This document shows positions 660 through 41,772 of a stretch of 41,772 nucleotides of DNA, piece by piece (the stretch's first letter is position 1; each line of letters begins with the position of its first letter). The notes beneath the pieces are model-generated. The model saw nothing but the letters and a program-made list of their open reading frames with translations. It had not been told where the DNA came from and did no database searches. A program made the translations under genes and the position numbers. Source of the DNA: Chrysiogenes arsenatis DSM 11915 (GTDB lineage: Bacteria > Chrysiogenota > Chrysiogenetes > Chrysiogenales > Chrysiogenaceae); NCBI RefSeq assembly GCF_000469585.1, contig NZ_AWNK01000013.1, positions 1-41,772 on the forward strand, in the 5' to 3' direction.

Positions 660-705
660 GGTGGTCAAAATTCGGTGATCACAGGTGGTCAATTTTCGGT
701 TGTCA
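660..705. repeat. Right-end repeats of the IS21 element
   Basis: Two near-identical 22-base units lie in direct orientation, at 660-681 and 684-705. Both start GGTGGTCAA, continue ATTCGG or TTTCGG, and end TCA. IS21 elements carry such multiple terminal repeats as transposase binding sites. The outermost CA at 704-705 fits the conserved IS21 terminus. Direct flanking duplication cannot be tested because the left end is absent. Confidence 0.7.
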
Positions 706-2070
706 TAACGACGGCTTAATGGTGCGCATAAGGGAGCGCCATGGCTTGACTCGTAGCACCAGCTGCAGGAGGCGGATCAGTTTTTTACTTCCTGCATGGA
801 GAAATCCATACGATCTTGCTCGCCGGAATCTTCGGGGGAGTACGTGGAGCGTGAGTAGATAAAGAAAGTACTCGCCTTTGACGGTTCTGGTGCGGTCTTC
901 TCCACTTTTTGCATGGCGATAGCGGAAGGTGATCATGCCGTTTTGGCTGTGCAGAATATCTTTTTCACGGATCACACCACGATACAAATAGCGGCCAAGG
1001 TAGATTAATGCTTTTTCGCCGTTGCCCGCATCTTTGCAGTCAACCACCCACTGTTTTGGGCAATCATATGGAACGGGTAGTTTGTTTTCGACCAAACTTT
1101 GAAGCAGCTTTGCTCGGAATACGTTGGCCAATGCTTTATGGCAAAAAAGGTAGTTCCCAGACTTCTTGTTCCTCCAGTTGATGTCTAAAGAGTTCGCGAC
1201 GGAGTTGACAACCGTTCTGGTGTTGTTGGCTGTTGTGGCGGTCAAGTGGGTATATCTGGCAGTGGTTAGAATGCTGACATGGCCAAGAATCTGCTGCAGC
1301 TCGAGCAGGTCGACTCCAGCTTCCAGCATATGGGTGGCATAACTGTGGCGCAGGGAATGGCATGTGATCCTTTTTAGGCCAAGGTGCCGAACCACGCCTT
1401 GCATAGCGGTTTGGATGCCTCCCCTGTCCAGAGGCAAATCAACCAAGTGGGCATTCTTCAGGCCTCGTTTTCTACTGGGGAAAAGAAAGCGGGGATGCTG
1501 GTGCACCGCCCAGAACTCCCGCAACAGCTGCAATGTTTTATTAGGCAAAGGCACCAGTCGATCCTTGTTCCCCTTGGCATCGCGAATATGCACCCGCATA
1601 TTGCCAGCGTCGATATCGTCTACTGTAAGCCGGATACCCTCACCAAGGCGTAAACCCATGCTATAGCAGGTAAAGAAGAAAACCTTGTAGCTCAAGATAC
1701 TGGTTGCGGCGAATAATCGTCCAGCCTGCTCCACCGACAAAATATCAGGAATTCTTGATGCCTTGGGCGGTTTGATCAGGAGAATGTTATCCCAAGGCTT
1801 GCGCAACACTTCAGAGTAGAAGAATTTCAGCCCGTAGAGGTCAAGCTTGACCGCACTCCAAGAGTGCGTATCCAACAGCTCAGTGAAATAATCAAGCAAC
1901 TGATCGGATGAGAGATCGCCAACATTGCCATCGAAATAATTGCCGATGCGCCGAATCGCCCGAGCATAAGCATCAATGGTCTTCGGTTGCAAACCGCCAA
2001 GTTTGAGGCATTTGAGATGTTTCTGATACAGTTTGCCAAAATTAGGATTTTGCAGCATGGTGGTGTTCAT
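703..2070 (-). CDS. Tyrosine recombinase fused to the C-terminal part of an IS91-type transposase
   Basis: Residues 1-290 form a complete XerD-like tyrosine recombinase: an N-terminal SAM-like domain, then catalytic R141, a K in the GNKDRLVPL hairpin, HSLRH (H238, R241), LGH (H264) and ARYTHL (Y273). From about residue 300 the sequence becomes the C-terminal half of an IS91-type Y transposase, with WVVDCK, YLGRYLYRGVI (residues 357-367), TFRYRHAKSG, HVLPRRFRRARSYGFLH and KKLIRLLQLVLRV. The HUH metal-binding region is missing, so the transposase part should be inactive. IS91-group elements often carry a recombinase gene beside the transposase; here a deletion seems to have joined them in frame. 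The stop codon TGA (703-705) is supplied by the end of the neighbouring IS21 element. The start at 2070 has a GGAG Shine-Dalgarno. Confidence 0.85.
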   Translation of the reverse strand: MNTTMLQNPNFGKLYQKHLKCLKLGGLQPKTIDAYARAIRRIGNYFDGNVGDLSSDQLLDYFTELLDTHSWSAVKLDLYGLKFFYSEVLRKPWDNILLIKPPKASRIPDILSVEQAGRLFAATSILSYKVFFFTCYSMGLRLGEGIRLTVDDIDAGNMRVHIRDAKGNKDRLVPLPNKTLQLLREFWAVHQHPRFLFPSRKRGLKNAHLVDLPLDRGGIQTAMQGVVRHLGLKRITCHSLRHSYATHMLEAGVDLLELQQILGHVSILTTARYTHLTATTANNTRTVVNSVANSLDINWRNKKSGNYLFCHKALANVFRAKLLQSLVENKLPVPYDCPKQWVVDCKDAGNGEKALIYLGRYLYRGVIREKDILHSQNGMITFRYRHAKSGEDRTRTVKGEYFLYLLTLHVLPRRFRRARSYGFLHAGSKKLIRLLQLVLRVKPWRSLMRTIKPSL

Positions 2071-2145
2071 TGTAATCTCCTCGGCAATTGATAGAGAGCG
2101 GCAACCGCTCTGCTGCTACCTATTACCGAATAAATTGAGATTACA
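2071..2145 (-). promoter_or_regulatory. Inverted repeat able to mask the recombinase ribosome binding site
   Basis: TGTAATCTC at 2071-2079 and GAGATTACA at 2137-2145 are exact reverse complements. Between them is a perfect small hairpin, AGAGCGG-CAA-CCGCTCT (2095-2111). On the minus-strand transcript the later arm contains the Shine-Dalgarno sequence directly before the recombinase ATG, so the earlier arm could pair with it and block translation. It could equally be a terminal structure of the IS91-like element. The base pairing is seen; the role is inferred. Confidence 0.45.
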
Positions 2146-2204
2146 ACTGGTTAATCGTGCTTAGATGGGTTTATTCTGGATTTTACCTGCCGCGTAGCGG
2201 CTTC

Positions 2205-2258
2205 GTCCAACGAGTCGTTGAACCCGACAAATTATTGCGGGTTAACTAAGCGTTCGAT
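2205..2258 (+). repeat. attC-like cassette recombination site 1
   Basis: A 54-base imperfect palindrome starting GTCCAAC (an R'' core matching RYYYAAC) and ending at the GTT (2252-2254) of an R' core. The inner arms GTTGAACCCGACAA and TTGCGGGTTAAC pair except for two unpaired bases on one arm, the extrahelical bases expected of integron attC sites. It ends about 13 bases before the kinase gene, which fits a cassette boundary. The last bases (TTCGAT) depart from the consensus TTRRRY. Identified by eye from structure; a covariance-model search has not been run. Confidence 0.65.
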
Positions 2259-2270
2259 TTTAAAAATGAG

Positions 2271-3404
2271 GTGACTGTGACTGCTAGAATCGTCGAATTT
2301 CTCAGAAAAAAAGATCTCGTATTTGTCAAAGAGCTTGGCCAAGGCGCTTGCGGAAAAACAGTTATTTTGCATGACGAAGTTATTGACGAAAGATTTGTTT
2401 GCAAAAAATACGCTCCTATTTATGAGCCTCTGAAAGAGGAATTGTTCGAGAATTTTGTCAGAGAAATAAAGCTATTGCACTTACTTAACCATCCAAATGT
2501 TGTACGTGTATTTAATTATTATCTGTATCCGGATAGGCTTACTGGCTACATACTAATGGAATTGATCGAGGGAAATGATATCGAGGAGTATTTGCTGTTG
2601 AACCCTGAGAAAGCAAATCAAGTTTTTTTGCAAACAGTCGATGGCTTTCAACATCTTGAGAAAAATGGAATTTTACACAGAGACATCAGGCCACAGAATA
2701 TCTTGGTTTCAGAAGATGGCGTAGTTAAAATCATCGACTTTGGCTTTGGCAAGCGAATAGCGACGAAAAGTGACTTCGATAAAAGCATTACACTGAACTG
2801 GTGGTGCGAACCCCCACTTGATTTTGTTAGTCACACATACAACTTTAAAACAGAAGTGTATTTCATTGGTAGATTGTTCGAAAAAATAATTTTGGAATCA
2901 GGTGTTGAGCAGTTTGCCTATAAAAATCTGCTATCGCGAATGTGTGCAAGCGATCCTTCACAGAGAATTGAATCATTTGACAAAATAAAGCAAGAAATCT
3001 TGGCTGGAAAATTTAATGAAATTAAGTTCTCCAATTATGAGCTTTCTGCATATAGATCTTTTGCAAATGATTTGTCGAGGGTTATCTCCAAAGTTGAGCA
3101 GAGTACGAAATATCATCGTGAAGCTCAAGATGTGGAACGTAAGTTAGAAGATGCTTACCGCCTTGTAATGCTTGAAGAGGTATTGCCTAACAACTCTCTT
3201 GTCATTCAATGTTTTCTCAATGGGGCCTATTATTACTCTAATAAAATATTTATTGAGGTAGAAAATCTTAGAAAATTTGTTGAGTTATTGAGGTCTAGTT
3301 CTCGGGAAAAGAAGAATATAATCTTAAGCAACATATATACTCGCCTAGATAATATTCAAAGGTATATGGAAAGCAACAACTTTGATGACGATATTCCATT
3401 TTAG
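2271..3404 (+). CDS. Protein kinase-like protein in a gene cassette
   Basis: Eukaryotic-type protein kinase fold of 377 residues. Visible motifs are the glycine-rich loop LGQGACGKT (22-30), the ATP lysine in VCKKY (45 or 46), the helix-C glutamate in VREIKLL, HRDIRPQN (136-143) with catalytic Asp138, and DFG (156-158). The HRD loop has Arg140 where serine/threonine kinases usually have Lys. The activation segment ends CEPPLDF instead of a normal APE motif. The C-terminal 150 residues are charged and helical, with no recognised domain and no membrane segment. The start is GTG at 2271 or GTG at 2277; AGGTG lies just before the latter. The gene sits between two attC-like sites and is AT-richer than the chromosomal genes, both pointing to acquisition. 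The substrate is unknown. Confidence 0.8.
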   Translation: MTVTARIVEFLRKKDLVFVKELGQGACGKTVILHDEVIDERFVCKKYAPIYEPLKEELFENFVREIKLLHLLNHPNVVRVFNYYLYPDRLTGYILMELIEGNDIEEYLLLNPEKANQVFLQTVDGFQHLEKNGILHRDIRPQNILVSEDGVVKIIDFGFGKRIATKSDFDKSITLNWWCEPPLDFVSHTYNFKTEVYFIGRLFEKIILESGVEQFAYKNLLSRMCASDPSQRIESFDKIKQEILAGKFNEIKFSNYELSAYRSFANDLSRVISKVEQSTKYHREAQDVERKLEDAYRLVMLEEVLPNNSLVIQCFLNGAYYYSNKIFIEVENLRKFVELLRSSSREKKNIILSNIYTRLDNIQRYMESNNFDDDIPF

Positions 3405-3450
3405 CCAGTCGATGAAGTAGATGCATGTGGACCTCAGTAGAAAAGCAAAA

Positions 3451-3552
3451 ATCGAACCAGCGCATCCACCGGACATGGGTACAGCAGTGGTTTTCGAAAT
3501 ATTTCTACTTGGCGTTTGGCCTCTACGCTGCCGGTGATGCTTTGCGTTATGT
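3451..3552 (+). repeat. attC-like cassette recombination site 2
   Basis: About 102 bases with outer cores ATCGAAC (3451-3457) and GTTATGT (3547-3553 region). The inner arms GCATCCACCGG (3462-3472) and CCGGTGATGC (3531-3540) are reverse complements except for one unpaired C, the expected extrahelical base. The loop is long (about 58 bases), as in the larger attC sites. The core matches are imperfect, so this is the weakest of the three, but its position between two cassette genes supports it. Confidence 0.55.
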
Positions 3553-3573
3553 GCAAAAAAGGAGTCCTGAGCT

Positions 3574-4142
3574 TTGTCAGACAATGCATTGCTAGCGCTA
3601 TACATCGGCTTTGGGACTGTCCTTGGCCTCTCATTGGTGCATTTATTTCAACCTTTCTTGGCCGTTCGCAAAAAATATCTACATTCAGGCAAGAATGGAT
3701 AAATTCACTTCGAGACGTATTTTTGAACATTATTTTTCGGGCAGAGGTTTTTACCGACGTTGCGCACAAAGATGATGAGGAAGCATATCGGGAAAAAGTG
3801 AAGCTCCTTGAAGCAATATCCAAAGCAAAGGTTCTTCTGAATCTCAGAGAAGAAGAATCTCGAAATCTCGTTCAAGCCCTAGAAGTCATCCCCGCCGAAT
3901 ATATGGGGAAAACAGGCGGATCAAAAAAATTTAAGGCACTTCAACCACGGATTGAAGAAACCATGCGGGATATTTTGAAAGAAGAGTGGAATCGAGTTAG
4001 GGATGGCGAAGTTCTTTGGAAGTTTAAAAAGCTCTTTAAACCAGGTGGCTTTCTACAAGAGTTCCATTGCTCACGGCTGGCAACCATTTTGTTGCTTCTA
4101 GTTTCAATGGTCGTGTTTGTGAAGTGGGTGAAATGCTCATAA
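3574..4142 (+). pseudogene. Membrane protein with N- and C-terminal membrane segments, frame broken near 3633
   Basis: The 3' part (from about 3635 to the TAA at 4140-4142) encodes IGAFISTFLGRS, then FRQEWINSLRD, a helical soluble region, and a C-terminal hydrophobic segment LATILLLLVSMVVFVKW. This resembles small membrane proteins of unknown function found in gene cassettes. The natural start appears to be TTG at 3574, nine bases after GGAG, which encodes MSDNALLALYIGFGTVLGL, a good membrane segment, but in another frame. One missing base near 3633 would join the two. An uninterrupted frame from ATG 3549 also exists, but its N-terminus is not hydrophobic and has no ribosome binding site. It is either a pseudogene or a sequencing error. 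The stop codon merges into attC 3. Confidence 0.55.
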
Positions 4143-29443: not shown

Positions 29444-30670
29444 ATGACATTCCGGCAACGCATGCTGCCCTGTACTCTGGCCGCCGCTCTAATGGCCTCC
29501 ACTGCATCGGGAGCCAGCATTCATGGGCACCTGAGCAGTGTCGTAGAATACTATGACGAGCCTGATAATAAGACCGCTCTCCCCGTCTACCAGTATTTAT
29601 TACTTCATGCCAACGATATTGCAGACAAAGGTTTCACCTTCCGTTTCTATGGCCGCGCCGCTACTGACCTGCACGATAACGATGAAGTGGGCAGTCACCT
29701 CTACTATGCCTATCTTGAAAAGCGTAACATGGCCGATAAAGTAGACTTCAAACTTGGCCGCCACTTTGTAGCCAGCACCGCTGGCGCTGCTATGATGGAT
29801 GGGCTCTCTGTCGATGTTCGCAACCTTGGTCCAGTCAGCATTGGTTTTTTTGGCGGTGGAGACGTCAAGTACTACGAAGATTATAAAGCTGGCGATATGA
29901 TAGCTGGGGCGAAAATTTCTACCGATGTGTGGAGTGACAGGCTTCATCTCGGCTTGTCGACTGTTCGTAAGTACGAAGAGAGCGAACTGAGCCATGAACT
30001 CTACGGCTTTAATGCTTACCTGAACTTTGACGATAAAGCCGAACTCTATACCGAAACGCAGTACGACTACCTCAGCGACACCATCAGCTACTTCCTTGCT
30101 GGAGCCAACTATCACGCTGCAGAAAAATGGACGCTGCGTGGCGAGTACCTCTACTCCCTTCCTGTTTTTTCCTCTAAGTCGCTCTATTCAGTATTTGCCG
30201 TTTCTGAATACAAAGAAATCATGACCAAAGCCACTTACCGCATTAACCTCGGCCTGAGCGCATTTGCCAAGTACACACATGAAATGTACGAGGATTTTTC
30301 GAATGCGAATGTTTACGAAGCTGGGCTGGAGCAAGTTCGTCTGAATAAGTTTTCTGGCTATTTTGCCGGTGTATGGCGCTCCCAAGATGAAGGACAAGAC
30401 TTGAAAGGGGTGCGTGGCCGTGCGGCATGGCTCTTTACCCCAACCTTTCAGGCGGGAGTTGGTGCGAGCGTTGACGTTATGGAACGCTGGCTGGAAATTT
30501 ATGAAGGGAGCGCGTACGGCGTGGATGAAACCACTTCGCACCGCATTTGGGTAGACAGCACGCTTTACCTTGGAAAGCGCGTAACGATGGAATTTAAGAT
30601 AGAGCAGGCTAAAAGCGCCCTGTGGGATAAGTTCCACCTTGGCCGCGTACGCTTGAACTACTACTTCTAA
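29444..30670 (+). CDS. Outer-membrane beta-barrel of a porin-cytochrome conduit
   Basis: 408 residues: signal peptide ending near TASGA, then amphipathic strands rich in Tyr and Phe throughout, finishing GRVRLNYYF with the terminal Phe required for barrel insertion. No haem motifs. Repeated FRFYGRA-, KLGRHFV-, LYTETQYDYL- and RGEYLYS-like strands are typical of multi-strand porins. Its place directly before two decahaem genes (15-base gaps) matches porin-cytochrome complexes, in which a barrel lets a periplasmic and a surface cytochrome touch through the outer membrane. It is not clearly MtrB or a known Geobacter barrel by eye. Shine-Dalgarno AAGGAGG. Confidence 0.8.
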   Translation: MTFRQRMLPCTLAAALMASTASGASIHGHLSSVVEYYDEPDNKTALPVYQYLLLHANDIADKGFTFRFYGRAATDLHDNDEVGSHLYYAYLEKRNMADKVDFKLGRHFVASTAGAAMMDGLSVDVRNLGPVSIGFFGGGDVKYYEDYKAGDMIAGAKISTDVWSDRLHLGLSTVRKYEESELSHELYGFNAYLNFDDKAELYTETQYDYLSDTISYFLAGANYHAAEKWTLRGEYLYSLPVFSSKSLYSVFAVSEYKEIMTKATYRINLGLSAFAKYTHEMYEDFSNANVYEAGLEQVRLNKFSGYFAGVWRSQDEGQDLKGVRGRAAWLFTPTFQAGVGASVDVMERWLEIYEGSAYGVDETTSHRIWVDSTLYLGKRVTMEFKIEQAKSALWDKFHLGRVRLNYYF

Positions 30671-30685
30671 GCAAAAGGAAGCGAC

Positions 30686-31555
30686 ATGAACCGATTTACC
30701 TTTGCCATATTTCTCTTATTTGGTTGCCTTCTCATGGGGGCGATAACCTATTCCATCGCGCAAACAGCGGTGGTTACCTATAACCACGACCGCCATGTCA
30801 ACTACATGGGTGGCATGGAATGCACCACGTGCCACGGCACAACGCTGGAAATTCTTTCACCGCCGCGCAGTGCGTGTGTGCAGTGTCATGGCAATGCCTT
30901 CAATGAAACCGTCATTATCCCTGCGCTGAAAACCCACGGCCCCGCTTAGGCGCTGACACACGGCGCACATGCCAAAAGTAAGCGGAACGACTGTATGCAG
31001 TGCCACGACCAGCCGCGTACGCGCAACATTCCCGACTGCCTGAGTTGCCATATAGCCGACAAAGCTGACGAAATGGGGAAACTTGGCAATAACTTCAGCA
31101 ACATCCATACCTCGGAATTCAGCATTACTCACCCCATAGCAGCGCGTACCAATCCGAACCTCTGTGCCAACTGTCACCGTGAAAACAGATTCTGCACCGA
31201 CTGTCACGACAAATTCCGCCGTAACGACCTTGGGATGGAGTCGCACCGCCGTAACTTCAGTGCGCTCCAGACTGGGCCATTGGCACAAAGTCACGATCAA
31301 TTCACTGAGGCTGATTGCAAGACCTGCCATGTGAATTCCATTATCCCGACTCACGAATGGTCAACTGCGCACGCGCGCGAAGCACGCAAGAACTTAGCGA
31401 CGTGCCAGGCTTGCCATCCGAGCGGAGACACCTGTGTGAAATGCCACAGCGCACGGAGCGGACTTGGCATTAGCCCACATCCGAAAAACTGGAATAAAAT
31501 TAAAGGTCGCCTCGAAAGAGCCAGCGGTGGCGCAACCTGTAGTCGCTGCCACTAA
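30686..31555 (+). CDS. Periplasmic-type decahaem cytochrome c, interrupted by an in-frame TAG
   Basis: A single frame of 290 codons with TAG at codon 88 (30947-30949). The N-terminus is a signal peptide or anchor (FAIFLLFGCLLMGAITYSIA). Ten CXXCH motifs are seen: two before the TAG (CTTCH, CVQCH) and eight after (CMQCH, CLSCH, CANCH, CTDCH, CKTCH, CQACH, CVKCH, CSRCH), the last being the C-terminus. The context THGPA-TAG-ALTHG fits the common THGPxW pattern of related cytochromes, so TGG (Trp) is expected. The downstream part has no start signal or signal peptide, so it cannot be a separate functional cytochrome. A likely periplasmic electron carrier inside the barrel. Readthrough, mutation or base error are all possible. 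Confidence 0.75.
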
Positions 31556-31569
31556 AACCTGAAGGAGTA

Positions 31570-34122
31570 ATGAAGAATATGAAACGGAAAACTCTGTTAC
31601 AGAGCACCATGGTTGGTGTTTTAAGCGCACTCCTACTGAGCGGTTGTGGTGGTGGAGGCAAGGGGAGCGGTGGAACTGCACCAGTTGGTCCCATCAGGAC
31701 ACCTGCTGGAGTAGTGATATCAGTTGATAATGCTACTGCAACACTTGATACGAACGATGAATTTATGCAGACATTTATGGATGCTGCCGATCCGCAGCCT
31801 GGTATTGCGACAACCATTACCTTGCAGAGTAACCCTGTGGCGGCCAGCGTTGCGGCTGTGTCGACCACAAACCCTTTTGCTGATATTGCCGCAAACGAAA
31901 TCAGCTTTACCCTCGCACGGTTGGTAACGCACGCTGATGGAACAAAGCAATAGCGCAGTTATGTGAGCCGCACCGAAACTGCTGATACGAATGATTTTCC
32001 CAATGGCCTAAGCAGTGCACTGCAAGCAACGGCTGTTGCAGGTACAGCGGGGGCGCTGAGTGTTGAAAACAAAGGTGGTAATGCGGTTGCCATCAAATTC
32101 CAATTCCCCAAAACACTGAGTGAATATGACAACGTTGCATTTGATAAATATGCTGTTCATCGTATAGGCATTCAGATTAACACCAATGCTACCAAGGGGA
32201 GAACAAATGCGATCAATATCGCGTATGACTTTGTTCCTGCCGATCTCAGCACTCCAGCAGACAGTGCACGGCGCGAAGTAGCCAAAACTGCAACGTGCCT
32301 TGAGTGCCATGAAAAAGGGAGCTTCCGCATTCACGGTGGTAACCGCGTAGATGTGGCGTATTGCGTGACGTGTCACAACCCCTATACCACCGACGCCCAA
32401 AGCGGCAACAGCCTTGATATGACGCAGATGATTCACAAAATTCACATGGGGCATAAACTGCCGAGCCTCGTGGAGGACAGTAAAGAATATGCCATTTACG
32501 GCTACAATATGAGTAAGCACACCTACGCCACATTCGATTCACCTGAATGGGGAGGCGTGAAGTATGCCGGAGCTGAACCTGCTGGTGTCGTGTATCCGGC
32601 GTGGCCATATGGACATGGAACGGCACAGCCTATGAATTGTGCCAAGTGCCACCGTGGCGACACTGTCGAAGCTAACGACACGGGTGTTACTGCTGCGGGT
32701 AATAACTGGAAAACCAATCCCAGTTATCGCGCCTGCTTTAGCTGTCATGATGGGGAGTCAAGTCAGCAAAAGCCATTTGTCGCTGGTAGCACAACATTTC
32801 TCCATGGAAACTTTACTGAAGGCACTGCTGGTGGTGCCTGCATTGGTTGTCACAATGCGACAACAACCGATGTAAAGCTCAACATCACTACCGCTCACGC
32901 AACCCTTGGGAAAACACCACTGAACCCTACGCAAGGCTATAAAACCTCTGCTGGAGTGCAGCGCGACTTGTACTCGTTCGAGTATCGTATCCACGGCGTA
33001 ACCACAGAATCAAATGACTCTGTACCCAAAATCCATTTTAGTATTCTCATCAACCGTGGCGATACAACCGACACGATGGACTTATTTGCCAATAATGCTG
33101 AACTAACTGGCGGCCCCACGTTCTTGGTAGCGTATGCCCAGCCAGATGCGTTAGCAACAACACCGGCTGATTGGAATCAGCAGGGCAAAAGACAGGGGCA
33201 ACCGCAAACGGTAGCGCTCAGTAGTCTTGTGGCTGGTGCTGCTGGTGACACGCTCGAGCGTCAGGCAGATGGCACCTATATCGCAACCCTGAACTCCGCT
33301 CCGTTCCCCGCTGGCGCGACCATGAAAGCGATTGCCCTGCAAGGGTATTTCCAGCAGACAGTAGGCAGCGAGTCTGTCCGACTCGCTACCCGTTCCGTGG
33401 TGCATTTTGTTGACGGAATCACCGAGCGCCGCCGCGTTGTGGACGAAACCAAGTGTTTGAGCTGTCACGACACGATCGCTTTTCACGGCGGTAACCGTGT
33501 GGATAACCCGCAAGTATGTGTGATTTGCCACAACCCAGCACTCACCAGCAGCGGACACACTTTGCCGTTACTGGCAACCGATTCGTCGGATCGTGTGGGT
33601 ATGTTCCGCACTGCCAGTGACCGCTTGCGTGCTGAAACCAGCAATAACTTCAAAGAGCTCATCCACGGTATTCACGCCGGAAATCTGCTTGGAGTCCGCA
33701 ACCAGAACAACAACCCAACGCCATACGATTTCAACCACAACTTATTTGGAAATAGTGGGGTGGCGCAAATATTTGGCACCGATTGTACCAAGTGCCATAT
33801 CACGGAAACGTACTACCCACGCGAAGGTCAGGGAGTATTGGCCACTGTCAATAACGTCCGTGCCGACACTACGGACGAAGACAGCTCCGACTCCTTGCGT
33901 GCCGCAATGGCAAGCATTACGAACAGTGCCGACCGTATGACGACCGCTTATGGTGCCAGTTGTGCTACCTGCCACATTTCCAGTGCAGCAAAAACGCATA
34001 TGCAGCAGTATGGAGCACAATTTGCTGTACGGCGCGATGCGCTGAACCCCGCACTGGAGTCGTGTGCTCGTTGCCACGGCAAAGACGAGTATATGGATGT
34101 GCGCAGCGCACACCGCTTTTAG
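31570..34122 (+). CDS. OmcA/MtrC-family decahaem outer-membrane lipoprotein cytochrome, interrupted by an in-frame TAG
   Basis: One frame of 851 codons with TAG at codon 128 (31951-31953). Lipobox LLLSGC, then a GGGG linker. The order is an Ig-like N-terminal domain, five CXXCH (CLECH, CVTCH, CAKCH, CFSCH, CIGCH), a second beta domain, then five more (CLSCH, CVICH, CTKCH, CATCH, CARCH). HGGNRVD motifs and the MIHKIHMG segment are family hallmarks. The break reads GTKQ-TAG-RSYVSRTET; family members have Trp before SY(I/V)xR, so TGG is expected. All ten haems lie after the TAG, so termination would give no cytochrome. Start ATG 31570, or 31579 with better spacing. Probable terminal reductase facing outside the cell. 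Confidence 0.8.
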
Positions 34123-34334
34123 GCGGAAATTTCAGTAACAACGGGGTCTGCTTCCGGCAGATCCCGCTGATATACCTTGTAATTACCCTCATCAGGTATG
34201 GAGGTGCAACAGACCAGAGAGTATTGCTTGGGGTTTATGATGAGGCACTCGTGTGTGTTCATCATCGAGGAAGAGAAGGTATTTTAGTAACCACTCTGCC
34301 CTGTTTCAGGGAGAGTAAGAACCAAGGAGGATTC
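34123..34334. other. Spacer between the second and third decahaem genes, with two stem-loops
   Basis: GGGGTCTGC-TTCCG-GCAGATCCC (about 34143-34165) forms a stem with one G-T pair right after the cytochrome stop, without a T-run. A second possible stem uses ATGATGA and TCATCAT around 34239-34267. The first may stabilise or partly terminate the upstream transcript. A long open frame passes through from 33960 but is just the third cytochrome frame running upstream. Confidence 0.4.
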
Positions 34335-37067
34335 ATGAGGACGAAACACAAGAACGCCGTCACCGCCTGCAAAGGAGCGCTTGCCGCTCTTGGAGCAGCA
34401 GCTCTGTTAGTAGGGTCGGCTCAAGCAGCAACGCAGTCAATTACTCTGAACAACGGTTGGACGCTTGCAGGGTCAGCATTGAGCAATGTAAATGTTGCGT
34501 CAACGTTTACCGATGTAAAAACTGTTTGGAAATGGGAAAATGGTCAGTGGAAGGCATTTTCACCACAGACGACAGTTCAGTCGCAGCTAACGGCTGCTGG
34601 CATTGGCGGGTTAACTACCCTGAATGCCGGTGATGGTTTTTGGGTAAATGCGGCATTGAGCAGCAGCACCACGAAAACACTTACTGGAGATACCGTAGAG
34701 TCACCGAACCTTTCAGTCAAGGCTGGCTGGAACCTCGTTTCTCCTATCACAAGTGAGTCAACCACGTTAAGTAGCAAATTTAGCGATGCGAATAGCTTTG
34801 CTTCTGCTTGGACGTGGAAAGGGACGTTCTGGGAAGCCTACTCACCAGACGCGAACATGCAGGCACGGATGAAAGCGGCGCTGATTCCGGTTGCCAGCAG
34901 TGTTGCTCAGGGGCAAGGATTTTGGGTAAATGCGAAGACCGCTAAAGGGGTTGCGTTTGACGGCACAACAACTCCGCCAAGTCTCCCCGTGTTTATCTCT
35001 GGCGTGACCATGAACGCAGAGAATAAATTAGTCGCTACCTTCCAAGTTATGGATCCGATATACCTTTCTGCCAATGGCAGCTTAGCGTTTGGCATGCTGC
35101 GTTTGGCTCGGGTTGGGGCTGATGACAATATGACAGTGCTTGGTAATGCTTCTAATACTATCACCCCTAAGGGTAATGGTCTTTATGAGGTAGTAGTCAA
35201 TTCACCTGTGATTGTAGAAACTGCCGAAGGATTGGTACATCGCCTTGCGTTCCGCGTCAATGCTGATAGCGCTCTAGGACGTGAAGGGATTGATGGCTGG
35301 TATGATGTCGTTCCCGCTACTGGCGTAGCAACTCCAAGCCGCAACGTGGCTGAAACAGCAAGCTGCTATCAGTGCCACTCCAGATCAACCGGTGGCATTT
35401 ATCACTCAAACCGCTTCTCGGTTGAAACTTGTGTAACGTGTCACTCTGAGCCGGCAAGAAGGAATAACAGTGCTGCTATAAGTGCCTATGGCAGCTTTAA
35501 TGTGGTAAACAGTACTGCTGCGGGTCAAAACCGCACTCTTACGGAAATTGCTCACGCATTCCACAAAGATCTTGCTGGGCATAAAGTTGAAAGAGTACGT
35601 GAGTGTACGTCGTGCCACAGCTCAACTGGCGGCAGTGCGGACAACTGGAAAACGAAGCCAAGCTTCTTTGCCTGCTTCTCGTGTCACGACGTGAGTGCTA
35701 AGTTTGCTGATGGTCAGCAGCTTGCTACTTCGCACCGTCCAAGCGCAGGAGTTTCTGGTTGTGTAACATGTCACACTGGCACCACTATGCCTGATGTTGA
35801 GATTAGTAAAGTCCACCTTCCTGGCGCCAGAGGCGACGTAAGTGCTCTGCCAAATTACACGTACACCATTCACAGTGTAACTGACAGTACTGACGGCAGT
35901 GCACTGGTGAAATTCAGTGTCAAGAACAGCCTGACGCAGGCTCCTCTTGACGTAAGAACTACCAAACCTAATACCAGCTTGCAAGTGTACCTCGTGAGCA
36001 GCTTACCTGACACTGCCGCTGGTGTAACCCAGCCACGTGACTGGAACAATGCTCACCGTCCGAATGCACAGCCAAACGTTAACCTTACGATTGATAACGC
36101 TACAGATAGCCCTGATAGACTGACTTTTGACTCCGCGGATGGTACTTTCACAGCAATATTCCCAGCGGGTTCCTACCCTGCTGACGCCTACATGAAGGGT
36201 GCTTTCCTTCAGGGCTATGTTGGTAGTGTTGCGACTGTGGGTGGCGTGAGCTACATTCCAGCTCTTTCACAAGAGCGCCCGATTTCTGCCGTTGGCTTTG
36301 TTGGCACCGGCAATAGTGCGATCACGCATCCGCAAATTGCTACAGCGGCTAAGTGTCAAGCGTGCCACGCTGACTTTGGTATGCACGGTTCTGGATCGCG
36401 TATCAGTAACCCGAATATGTGTATTGGTTGCCACAACCCGAACCTGACCAGCAGTGGTAACACATTAAAGAGCGGTACTGCAGCGGCGGTTGCTATCGTG
36501 AATGGCAACAACCAAGCTCGCCTTCAGGCTGAAACCAGTAACAACCTGAAAGAACTGGCTCACGGTATTCACTCTGGGTACTTCACTGGGGAGAAGAAAT
36601 TCATCCGTGGTGGCAACGTAACCACTGGCGCAAGCAGCGGACAGAGCAACGAGTTTGAATTTGCTATGGATGTTGTTGACCTTGTCATCGGTTCCGACTG
36701 TACCAAGTGTCATGCTGGAACTTCTTACTATCCACGCGCTACCGGTGCATTGCCAACGACTTCTAAGATTCGTAGCACTGACTCTACCGAAGCGGAACTC
36801 CTCGCTATGGACACGTCAGATCTTGCCGATGCAATGATTGCGGCGCGTAACACTGTAGGGGCAAATCCACAGGATTACGTTATCGGTCACATGGCAGCAA
36901 GCTGTAACCAGTGTCACTCTGATGCTACAGCTATTGCACACATGAACCAACATGGTGGGCAGATTGAAGTTCGCCGTAATACTTACAATCCAGCAGCTCA
37001 GGCTTGCCTCCTGTGTCACGGTGCAGGCAAAGTTGCTGACATTAAAGCGGTTCACAAACTGCCGTAA
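34335..37067 (+). CDS. Third decahaem cytochrome c with two N-terminal GW-type repeats
   Basis: 910 residues from ATG 34335, with AAGGAGG four bases before it. The signal peptide is cleaved after AQA, with no lipobox, unlike the preceding cytochrome. Two repeats of about 75 residues follow (NNGWTLAGSALS ending GDGFWVNA, and KAGWNLVSPITS ending GQGFWVNAK). Then a beta domain and ten CXXCH motifs: CYQCH, CVTCH, CTSCH, CFSCH, CVTCH, CQACH, CIGCH, CTKCH, CNQCH, CLLCH. The haem part resembles OmcA/MtrC in the order and the NLKELAHGIHSG motif. No internal stop. It may be a secreted or surface-attached cytochrome, with the repeats acting in binding. Confidence 0.85.
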   Translation: MRTKHKNAVTACKGALAALGAAALLVGSAQAATQSITLNNGWTLAGSALSNVNVASTFTDVKTVWKWENGQWKAFSPQTTVQSQLTAAGIGGLTTLNAGDGFWVNAALSSSTTKTLTGDTVESPNLSVKAGWNLVSPITSESTTLSSKFSDANSFASAWTWKGTFWEAYSPDANMQARMKAALIPVASSVAQGQGFWVNAKTAKGVAFDGTTTPPSLPVFISGVTMNAENKLVATFQVMDPIYLSANGSLAFGMLRLARVGADDNMTVLGNASNTITPKGNGLYEVVVNSPVIVETAEGLVHRLAFRVNADSALGREGIDGWYDVVPATGVATPSRNVAETASCYQCHSRSTGGIYHSNRFSVETCVTCHSEPARRNNSAAISAYGSFNVVNSTAAGQNRTLTEIAHAFHKDLAGHKVERVRECTSCHSSTGGSADNWKTKPSFFACFSCHDVSAKFADGQQLATSHRPSAGVSGCVTCHTGTTMPDVEISKVHLPGARGDVSALPNYTYTIHSVTDSTDGSALVKFSVKNSLTQAPLDVRTTKPNTSLQVYLVSSLPDTAAGVTQPRDWNNAHRPNAQPNVNLTIDNATDSPDRLTFDSADGTFTAIFPAGSYPADAYMKGAFLQGYVGSVATVGGVSYIPALSQERPISAVGFVGTGNSAITHPQIATAAKCQACHADFGMHGSGSRISNPNMCIGCHNPNLTSSGNTLKSGTAAAVAIVNGNNQARLQAETSNNLKELAHGIHSGYFTGEKKFIRGGNVTTGASSGQSNEFEFAMDVVDLVIGSDCTKCHAGTSYYPRATGALPTTSKIRSTDSTEAELLAMDTSDLADAMIAARNTVGANPQDYVIGHMAASCNQCHSDATAIAHMNQHGGQIEVRRNTYNPAAQACLLCHGAGKVADIKAVHKLP

Positions 37068-37114
37068 TAGTCAGAAAAGACCCCTGCTTTAGATTACTTG
37101 CGGTTCACATTCTT

Positions 37115-37147
37115 CCTCCCGAGGTTTTCCTCTTACCCTCGGGAGGG
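37115..37147 (+). terminator. Stem-loop after the third decahaem gene
   Basis: CCTCCCGAGG (37115-37124) and CCTCGGGAGG (37138-37147) are perfect 10-base arms around a 13-base loop. The following T-run is weak (TTCTCTTTCT), so it may act as a partial terminator or mRNA 3' end protector. Confidence 0.6.
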
Positions 37148-37172
37148 GGTTCTCTTTCTACAGAACCTAATC

Positions 37173-37202
37173 GCTTCCCTCAGAGGGGGGAAGCCTTTTT
37201 TG
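37173..37202 (+). terminator. Rho-independent terminator
   Basis: GCTTCCC (from 37173) pairs with GGGGAAGC, followed by CTTTTTTG. It ends the cytochrome transcript about 45 bases before the next gene, so the downstream lipoprotein probably has its own or only read-through transcription. Confidence 0.75.
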
Positions 37203-37245
37203 TTTACCGCCTGAGTTGAAATGTTCAAACAACCAAGGAGATTCT

Positions 37246-38772
37246 ATGAGTAGGAAATTTCTTGTATTTATGACGGCACTGGCGCTTGGTGGCGCCACGC
37301 TGGTTACCGGCTGCGGTGGCGGCGGCGGTGGGTCAACTCCGCCTGCATCGTCGTCGGTTTCCGTCTCCGGAAATGTTTCCGATGGATATATTTCGGGCGC
37401 AACTATCAAGGTGAACGGCGTTCCCCAACCTACCCTTACTGGTGCTACGGGAAATTACACCGTTGATGTGACGGGTAGTTCCCAGATTACTGCTGAAGGT
37501 GGAACTGACGTTGCGAACAATAAGCCATTTACTGGAATTTTGATCGCAGACTTCGTGAGTGGTGTCGATAGTCCAGAAGGACTCTATGTGACACCGCTTA
37601 CTACCTTGTTGCACTTTGCGCCGACGGTTTTTGATGCAGGCGCAATCACTAAAGCTCAGGTAAAAAAGCTTGATATTGGTAATCCGAATGCTACCGGGAA
37701 TAATATTCAAGTTGCTCGGAAAGCTGCGCTTGCTGTGCAGAATATTGTTGCTACGTTAAAGTCGGCTACCGGTAACAATCTTGGCTCGGATACCGCCGAA
37801 AGAGTGCGGGTAGCATTCTCTGCAGTGGGTGCGCATTTAGCATCTAATCCACTCGTAAACGACAGTGGTGAGACAGTTGTTTTTGATAGTGCAGATGTCC
37901 GCGAGATTGCTGGAAATGCAAAAGGGCTGGTTGATGCTGCACAAGCAAATCTTGTAGAAGCACAGATCAATGCTGCATCGAGTATTATTGAAACTCTGAC
38001 GAATGAGATTCAATTACTCGATAGTGCTCTTTCCGCTGCGGCATTGCAGAATGCTATTGAGATAACGCGCGCTGCTTATCAGGCTCAGCTTGACAGTATC
38101 GAACAGACGCCGTCGGTGGACAGTGCTGAAGAGATTGCTACTGTAATTGCGGAGCAAGTTCAAGCGAAGGCAGCCGTCCTTGAGACGAACCGTGCACGTG
38201 CAGCGGCGTCGCTTGCTTACTATTCGGCACAGCCCGTTAATGGTGATACGCTGGAGGTTGACGTTGCCAGTGTACGCGATTCTATTGAGGCGCTGATTGT
38301 TGCAAATGATACAAAAGAAACTAGCGAGTTCGATGCTATTTACGGCCAAGCTAACCGTCTCCCTCGCTTAGTTTCTGCTTTGCCAGCACAGACGTTAGTG
38401 GTTGGTACTGCAATGACACCGCTTCAGCTTGGATCGTTTTTCAAAGATAACGGAACGCTGACGTATGCTGTTACGAGTGGTTCACTCCCGGCAGGTGTTG
38501 CTTTGGCTTCGGGCGTTATCAGTGGTACGGCGACGGCAGCGTCGGCGGTTAGTACTGTGGTAATTACCGCGACTGACACCAGTGATAAAGCTGTTTCCGG
38601 TAGTGTTACCTTCACGGTAAGCGCTACGCCTGTTGACCCTGATCCGATTGATCCGGCTGATTGTGCGGTTGATTATCCGCCAGTGCAAGGATTGCCAAGT
38701 GATTTCTATCCTCCTAAAGTAGTCGAAGCATGTTATCCTGATAACCTGTTCCCGCCTACTCCTGGATTATAA
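37246..38772 (+). CDS. Lipoprotein with regulatory-like and Ig-like domains
   Basis: 508 residues. The lipobox ends VTGC followed by GGGGGG. Residues about 30-130 form a carboxypeptidase-regulatory-like fold (VSVSGNVSDGYISGATIKV, ending YVTPLTTLLHF) also found in the giant lipoprotein at 11383. The middle is helical and Ala-rich. Residues about 385-475 resemble a putative-Ig (He_PIG) domain (ALPAQTLVVG, TYAVTSGSLPAGVAL, VISGTATAAS). A Pro- and Cys-containing tail follows. ATG 37246 has AAGGAG upstream; an upstream in-frame ATG at 37216 lacks one. Location after the electron-transfer genes hints at a surface adhesin or scaffold role; not proven. Confidence 0.75.
   Translation: MSRKFLVFMTALALGGATLVTGCGGGGGGSTPPASSSVSVSGNVSDGYISGATIKVNGVPQPTLTGATGNYTVDVTGSSQITAEGGTDVANNKPFTGILIADFVSGVDSPEGLYVTPLTTLLHFAPTVFDAGAITKAQVKKLDIGNPNATGNNIQVARKAALAVQNIVATLKSATGNNLGSDTAERVRVAFSAVGAHLASNPLVNDSGETVVFDSADVREIAGNAKGLVDAAQANLVEAQINAASSIIETLTNEIQLLDSALSAAALQNAIEITRAAYQAQLDSIEQTPSVDSAEEIATVIAEQVQAKAAVLETNRARAAASLAYYSAQPVNGDTLEVDVASVRDSIEALIVANDTKETSEFDAIYGQANRLPRLVSALPAQTLVVGTAMTPLQLGSFFKDNGTLTYAVTSGSLPAGVALASGVISGTATAASAVSTVVITATDTSDKAVSGSVTFTVSATPVDPDPIDPADCAVDYPPVQGLPSDFYPPKVVEACYPDNLFPPTPGL

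Positions 38773-40677: not shown

Positions 40678-41772
<1,095 letters not shown>

What the first reader, a model, noticed from the sequence alone, without database searches (positions are those of the whole stretch)
30947..31953. Two in-frame amber codons at expected tryptophan positions in adjacent decahaem cytochrome genes
Each gene is one continuous frame broken once, by TAG: codon 88 of the periplasmic-type decahaem (GCT-TAG-GCG) and codon 128 of the OmcA/MtrC-type decahaem (CAA-TAG-CGC). Family patterns (THGPxW; Trp before SYxxR) call for TGG at both. Eight of ten haems in the first and all ten in the second lie after the stop, so normal termination would disable both parts of the conduit, yet neither gene shows any other decay. 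Options: suppression or recoding of UAG (for example by a CUA-reading tRNA), regulated readthrough, two null mutations in one pathway, or two G-to-A base errors. TAG is also used as an ordinary stop in this window (19443, 34120, 4860), so genome-wide reassignment is unlikely.
Basis: partly seen in the sequence, partly recalled or inferred. Interest (0 to 1): 0.85.

Follow-up and report, generated by a model that had tools for sequence, protein, structure and literature searches.

The report
Doubly amber-broken electron-conduit operon
Two neighbouring genes for haem proteins that carry electrons out of the cell each contain one premature TAG stop where relatives have tryptophan; the genome has an ordinary genetic code and no tRNA that reads TAG, so the simplest reading is a recently broken operon, not a hidden recoding system.

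Summary
In detail: one in-frame TAG each at 30947-30949 (codon 88 of a periplasmic decahaem cytochrome) and 31951-31953 (codon 128 of an OmcA/MtrC-family cytochrome), both otherwise open. Relatives support tryptophan at both: Desulfurispirillum indicum (same family) has THGPA-TGG-ALNHG at site 1; at site 2, 13 of 18 alignable homologues have Trp and 5 Tyr. I found nothing that would decode UAG: 34 tRNAs, none with anticodon CUA; no pyrrolysyl-tRNA synthetase above cut-off; intact RF1; TAG ends 93 of 516 sampled long ORFs. In 1.18 Mb (42%) of the genome a heuristic scan found one other clear stop-interrupted gene, a TAA. E. coli reads TAG through with Tyr, Gln or Lys, not Trp (PMC11126739). Best explanation (about 0.8): two TGG-to-TAG null mutations, recent because nothing else has decayed, in an outer-membrane electron conduit the organism no longer needs; the second was tolerated once the first had broken the pathway. 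One oddity remains: two random nonsense mutations would both be TGG-to-TAG in at most about 2% of cases. Base errors, leaky readthrough and A-to-I editing (UAG to UIG, read as Trp) are not excluded. Resequencing and RNA-seq across 30948 and 31952 would decide.

The parts
29444..30670 (+). Outer-membrane porin-like protein (408 aa), intact; first gene of the conduit
   Evidence: No Pfam or NCBIfam hit; porins of similar size (405 and 427 aa) sit directly before the decahaem orthologue in G002 and G034
30686..31555 (+). Periplasmic decahaem c-type cytochrome, reading frame interrupted by one TAG (289 codons read through)
   Evidence: Ten CXXCH motifs, 2 before and 8 after the stop; intact 302-aa orthologue in G002, 56% identity, and 41% in G034
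30947..30949 (+). In-frame TAG, codon 88; TGG in the same-family orthologue
31570..34122 (+). OmcA/MtrC-family decahaem outer-membrane cytochrome, frame interrupted by one TAG (850 codons read through)
   Evidence: TIGR03507 314 bits against cut-off 209.3; PF22113 2e-48; signal sequence with lipobox-like LLLSGC at the N-terminus
31951..31953 (+). In-frame TAG, codon 128; aligned column in homologues is 13 Trp, 5 Tyr
34332..37067 (+). Second OmcA/MtrC-like multihaem cytochrome (911 aa), intact
   Evidence: PF22113 2.4e-31 for the longer ORF; TIGR03507 195.5 bits, just under the cut-off; ATG at 34332 shortly after an AGGAGG-like stretch
37216..38772 (+). Lipoprotein with putative Ig domain (He_PIG); a similar pair, 1013-aa cytochrome and He_PIG-like lipoprotein, lies on contig C1
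   Evidence: PF05345 3.2e-9; C1 copy in L081

Best explanation
Both genes are recently inactivated pseudogenes. A G-to-A change turned a Trp codon (TGG) into TAG in each. Normal UAG termination by RF1 ends translation at residue 87 of the periplasmic decahaem (2 of 10 haem sites made) and at residue 127 of the outer-membrane cytochrome (none made), so this trans-outer-membrane electron conduit does not work in the sequenced strain. The porin and the second outer-membrane cytochrome are still open. Shown: the stops, the Trp expectation, normal UAG termination machinery, no CUA tRNA. Inferred: the order of events (one gene broke first under relaxed selection, after which the second change was neutral), the recent age, and loss of function.
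For: No tRNA with anticodon CUA among 34 tRNA genes; the one tRNA-Trp has CCA, and a pattern scan for missed CUA tRNAs gave 4 sites, none a CUA tRNA. No PylS above cut-off (best 18.8 bits against 178). RF1 intact with PAT and GGQ motifs, RF2 intact. TAG ends 93 of 516 sampled ORFs of 200 aa or more. The only other clear stop-interrupted gene found in 42% of the genome uses TAA, in a nucleotidyltransferase-domain gene, so the genome holds ordinary nonsense pseudogenes. Clustering in one operon is what a broken pathway predicts. G001, in the same family, has no detectable copy, so the genes are dispensable in this family. Listed acceptors of Chrysiogenes arsenatis are arsenate, nitrate and nitrite (PMC3368425), which need no outer-membrane conduit.
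Against: Both lesions are Trp-to-amber: two random nonsense mutations would both be TGG-to-TAG with probability about 0.001 to 0.007, or 0.023 if only transitions occur (products of per-gene values or counts; judged after the fact). No other decay is visible: in a neutral simulation the chance of no further stop, indel or lost haem ligand falls to 0.06 at 0.5% divergence, so both changes must be very recent or the genes are still selected.
Confidence: 0.8

Rival explanations
1. Leaky or regulated readthrough: ribosomes pass UAG by near-cognate misreading often enough to make some full-length cytochrome, so the genes are kept and expressed at low level.
For: No decay after either stop; in-frame stops with purifying selection downstream have been reported in bacteria (PMC7918605); two adjacent genes of one pathway share the same codon.
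Against: No suppressor tRNA; RF1 intact. In E. coli UAG was read through as Tyr, Gln or Lys and UGA as Trp, and UGA leaked more (PMC11126739), so UAG is the wrong stop for making Trp. The two flanking contexts share no motif or structure. Efficiencies would multiply across two genes of one complex.
Confidence: 0.08
2. Sequencing or assembly error, or a minority base called at both sites; the true sequence is TGG twice.
For: A change of one base at each site, both G to A, and no other damage.
Against: Two substitution errors 1 kb apart in a 22-contig, 100% complete assembly, with one other clear in-frame stop in the 1.18 Mb scanned; the window contig carries ordinary chromosomal genes.
Confidence: 0.07
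3. A-to-I mRNA editing: the A of each UAG is deaminated so that UIG is read as UGG (Trp), as in fungal amber-to-Trp editing.
For: It explains why both sites are amber in place of Trp; editing of UAG stop codons is documented in Fusarium PUK1 (PMC4817773), where editing prefers U at -1 and hairpin loops (PMC11156358). Both sites have U at -1; site 1 lies at the edge of a 5-nt loop. The genome has four proteins with the deaminase domain, at least one TadA-like.
Against: Bacterial editing by TadA is reported at UACG (PMC12214031); neither site fits. The site 1 hairpin is no better than shuffles (z -0.09 and -1.17) and site 2 is not in a hairpin loop.
Confidence: 0.02
4. UAG reassigned or suppressed genome-wide (Trp-like or pyrrolysine).
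For: None beyond the two sites.
Against: TAG is a common terminator, RF1 present, no CUA tRNA, no PylS, no further in-frame TAG among the scan candidates in 42% of the genome.
Confidence: 0.01

Closest known systems
Porin-cytochrome (pcc) cluster of Desulfurispirillum indicum S5 (PMC4245776; intact orthologues seen here in L079)
   Same: Same porin and decahaem gene pair, 56% identity for the decahaem, similar order. That L079 is the published pcc cluster is inferred; locus tags were not matched.
   Different: There the decahaem is uninterrupted with TGG at codon 88, and the outer cytochrome is a different 882-aa multihaem protein instead of an OmcA/MtrC protein
OmcA/MtrC family decahaem cytochromes (TIGR03507)
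   Same: Read-through protein scores 314 bits against a cut-off of 209.3, ten haems
   Different: Amber codon at an aromatic position of the N-terminal domain
Nonsense pseudogenes of bacteria
   Same: Single stop in an otherwise open frame, intact relatives elsewhere
   Different: Two in adjacent genes, both Trp to amber, with no other decay
Amber-to-Trp RNA editing in fungi (Fusarium PUK1, PMC4817773)
   Same: Amber codon at a Trp position
   Different: Fungal; no editing evidence here, and the bacterial TadA motif is not met

Membership tests
OmcA/MtrC family decahaem cytochrome | TIGR03507 score above cut-off when read through | tested here: met
   314 against 209.3 bits
OmcA/MtrC family decahaem cytochrome | Ten CXXCH haem motifs | tested here: met
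   Ten, all after codon 128
MtrA/DmsE-type periplasmic decahaem (TIGR03508) | Model match by the first cytochrome | tested here: not met
   No TIGR03508 match at E <= 0.001 for P0001
Porin-cytochrome (pcc) type conduit | Adjacent genes for porin, periplasmic multihaem and outer-membrane multihaem cytochrome | tested here: met
   Gene order in the window; porin and decahaem pair conserved in G002 and G034. The porin assignment itself rests on position and size, as no family model matched.
UAG recoding by suppressor or pyrrolysine tRNA | tRNA with anticodon CUA | tested here: not met
   None among 34 tRNAs nor by pattern
UAG recoding by suppressor or pyrrolysine tRNA | PylS or absent/altered RF1 | tested here: not met
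   PylS 18.8 bits against cut-off 178; RF1 542 bits, intact
Nonsense pseudogene | In-frame stop where relatives have a sense codon | tested here: met
Nonsense pseudogene | No functional product | not testable with these tools
   Needs proteomics
Bacterial A-to-I mRNA editing by TadA | UACG motif at the edited A | tested here: not met
   UUAGG and AUAGC

The most novel reading that the evidence does not exclude
Both amber codons are converted to Trp at the RNA or decoding level (A-to-I editing of UAG, or Trp insertion at UAG), switching a whole electron conduit on or off.
Probability: 0.03. Interest if true: 0.9.

Novelty: new member of a known kind. Interest (0 to 1): 0.25.

Why it matters
If ordinary, it means that extracellular electron transfer should not be annotated for this strain from gene presence alone, and that it may be recently lost here. 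If Trp were really made at both sites it would be, as far as I know, the first amber-to-Trp recoding of bacterial respiratory genes.

Tried and rejected
Genome-wide UAG reassignment and suppressor tRNA: rejected. Pyrrolysine: rejected. Restart downstream: GTG at 31963 (9 nt after the second TAG) and ATG at 30995 give ORFs, but these products would lack the export signal needed for haem attachment, so separate translation of the C-terminal parts would not give working cytochromes (established c-type cytochrome biology). Shared stem-loop or sequence motif at the two sites: none. Other in-frame TAGs: the scan candidates turned out to be neighbouring genes with starts near the stop; 2271-4142 looked like a TAG-split frame but is a kinase gene ending normally at TAG. 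Plasmid records hold no relative. A paper search for mtrC pseudogenes found none.

Full report
What is there. The window is a whole 41,772-base contig (C11) of a 2.83 Mb, 22-contig genome. A genome in the same family (G002) has the exact length of Desulfurispirillum indicum S5, 2,928,377 bp (PMC3368425), so the window comes from the family Chrysiogenaceae and most likely from Chrysiogenes arsenatis. At 29444-38772 lie a porin-like gene, a decahaem cytochrome (30686-31555), an OmcA/MtrC-family decahaem cytochrome (31570-34122), a second OmcA/MtrC-like cytochrome and a He_PIG lipoprotein. The first two cytochromes each carry exactly one internal stop, TAG, at 30947-30949 and 31951-31953.

Is Trp expected? 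At site 1 the same-family orthologue reads THGPAWALNHG with TGG at that codon. More distant homologues often have Trp but also Phe, Asn or Ile, so the position is usual, not absolute. At site 2, 18 homologues align: 13 Trp, 5 Tyr. The one that matches this part most extensively (L139, GDPDTWQSYITREASAST against GTKQ*RSYVSRTETADT) has Trp. Trp is therefore the best guess at both, and one G-to-A change gives TAG from TGG.

Can the cell read UAG? All 34 tRNA genes found by covariance model have assigned anticodons and none is CUA; the single tRNA-Trp has CCA. A pattern search for a missed CUA tRNA gave four sites, none a CUA tRNA. There is no PylS. RF1 is intact with its PAT and GGQ motifs, and 93 of 516 sampled long ORFs end in TAG. 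An adjacent-frame scan of 1.18 Mb (42% of the genome) found only one other clear interrupted gene, a TAA inside a nucleotidyltransferase-domain gene on C15. In-frame TAG is therefore not a general feature of this genome.

What happened? The plain reading is two nonsense mutations in one pathway. The other members of the family fit a dispensable conduit: intact in D. indicum, not found in G001. The listed acceptors of C. arsenatis are soluble (PMC3368425). Clustering in one operon is expected if the first break made the second neutral. The C-terminal part of the first cytochrome is as similar to the D. indicum orthologue as the N-terminal part (56% and 54%) and all haem motifs are kept in both genes. 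A neutral simulation allows this only for very recent loss, with a 33% chance of no further lesion at 0.2% divergence and 6% at 0.5%.

What does not fit well. If the two lesions are random nonsense mutations, both being TGG-to-TAG has a probability near 0.001 to 0.007, or 0.023 for transitions only. This was noticed after the fact, and it is the main reason to keep the decoding or editing readings alive. Against them: UAG readthrough in E. coli inserts Tyr, Gln or Lys and not Trp (PMC11126739); the sites share neither context nor structure; and the known bacterial editing motif UACG is absent (PMC12214031). Fungal editing does change UAG stop codons, preferring U at -1 and hairpin loops (PMC4817773, PMC11156358). 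Site 1 would tolerate such a reading and site 2 would not.

Verdict. The feature is real but of an ordinary kind. Reads and RNA-seq at two bases would settle it.

Noticed in passing
L177:19877 (C15:19877, minus strand); L179: A nucleotidyltransferase-domain gene (MntA-like antitoxin, by its neighbourhood) is interrupted in frame by TAA, directly before a HEPN-like gene; another nonsense pseudogene in this genome.
   Followed up: partly
window 34332-38772 and L081:6083-10587: A pair of OmcA/MtrC-like cytochrome and He_PIG lipoprotein occurs twice in the genome, on C11 and C1, both intact.
   Followed up: no
window 703-2070: One ORF joins a phage-integrase domain to a Y2_Tnp putative transposase domain.
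   Followed up: no
window 2001-4000: G+C falls to 0.39 (about 0.51 around it) over a Ser/Thr-kinase-like gene, perhaps acquired.
   Followed up: no
L079:10160-12808 and L080:9627-12221: The porin and decahaem pair is conserved in three genomes while the outer-membrane cytochrome after it differs (OmcA/MtrC here, other multihaem proteins there), as if the outer part were exchanged.
   Followed up: partly
window 40713-41177: ParE-like toxin domain gene near the contig end.
   Followed up: no
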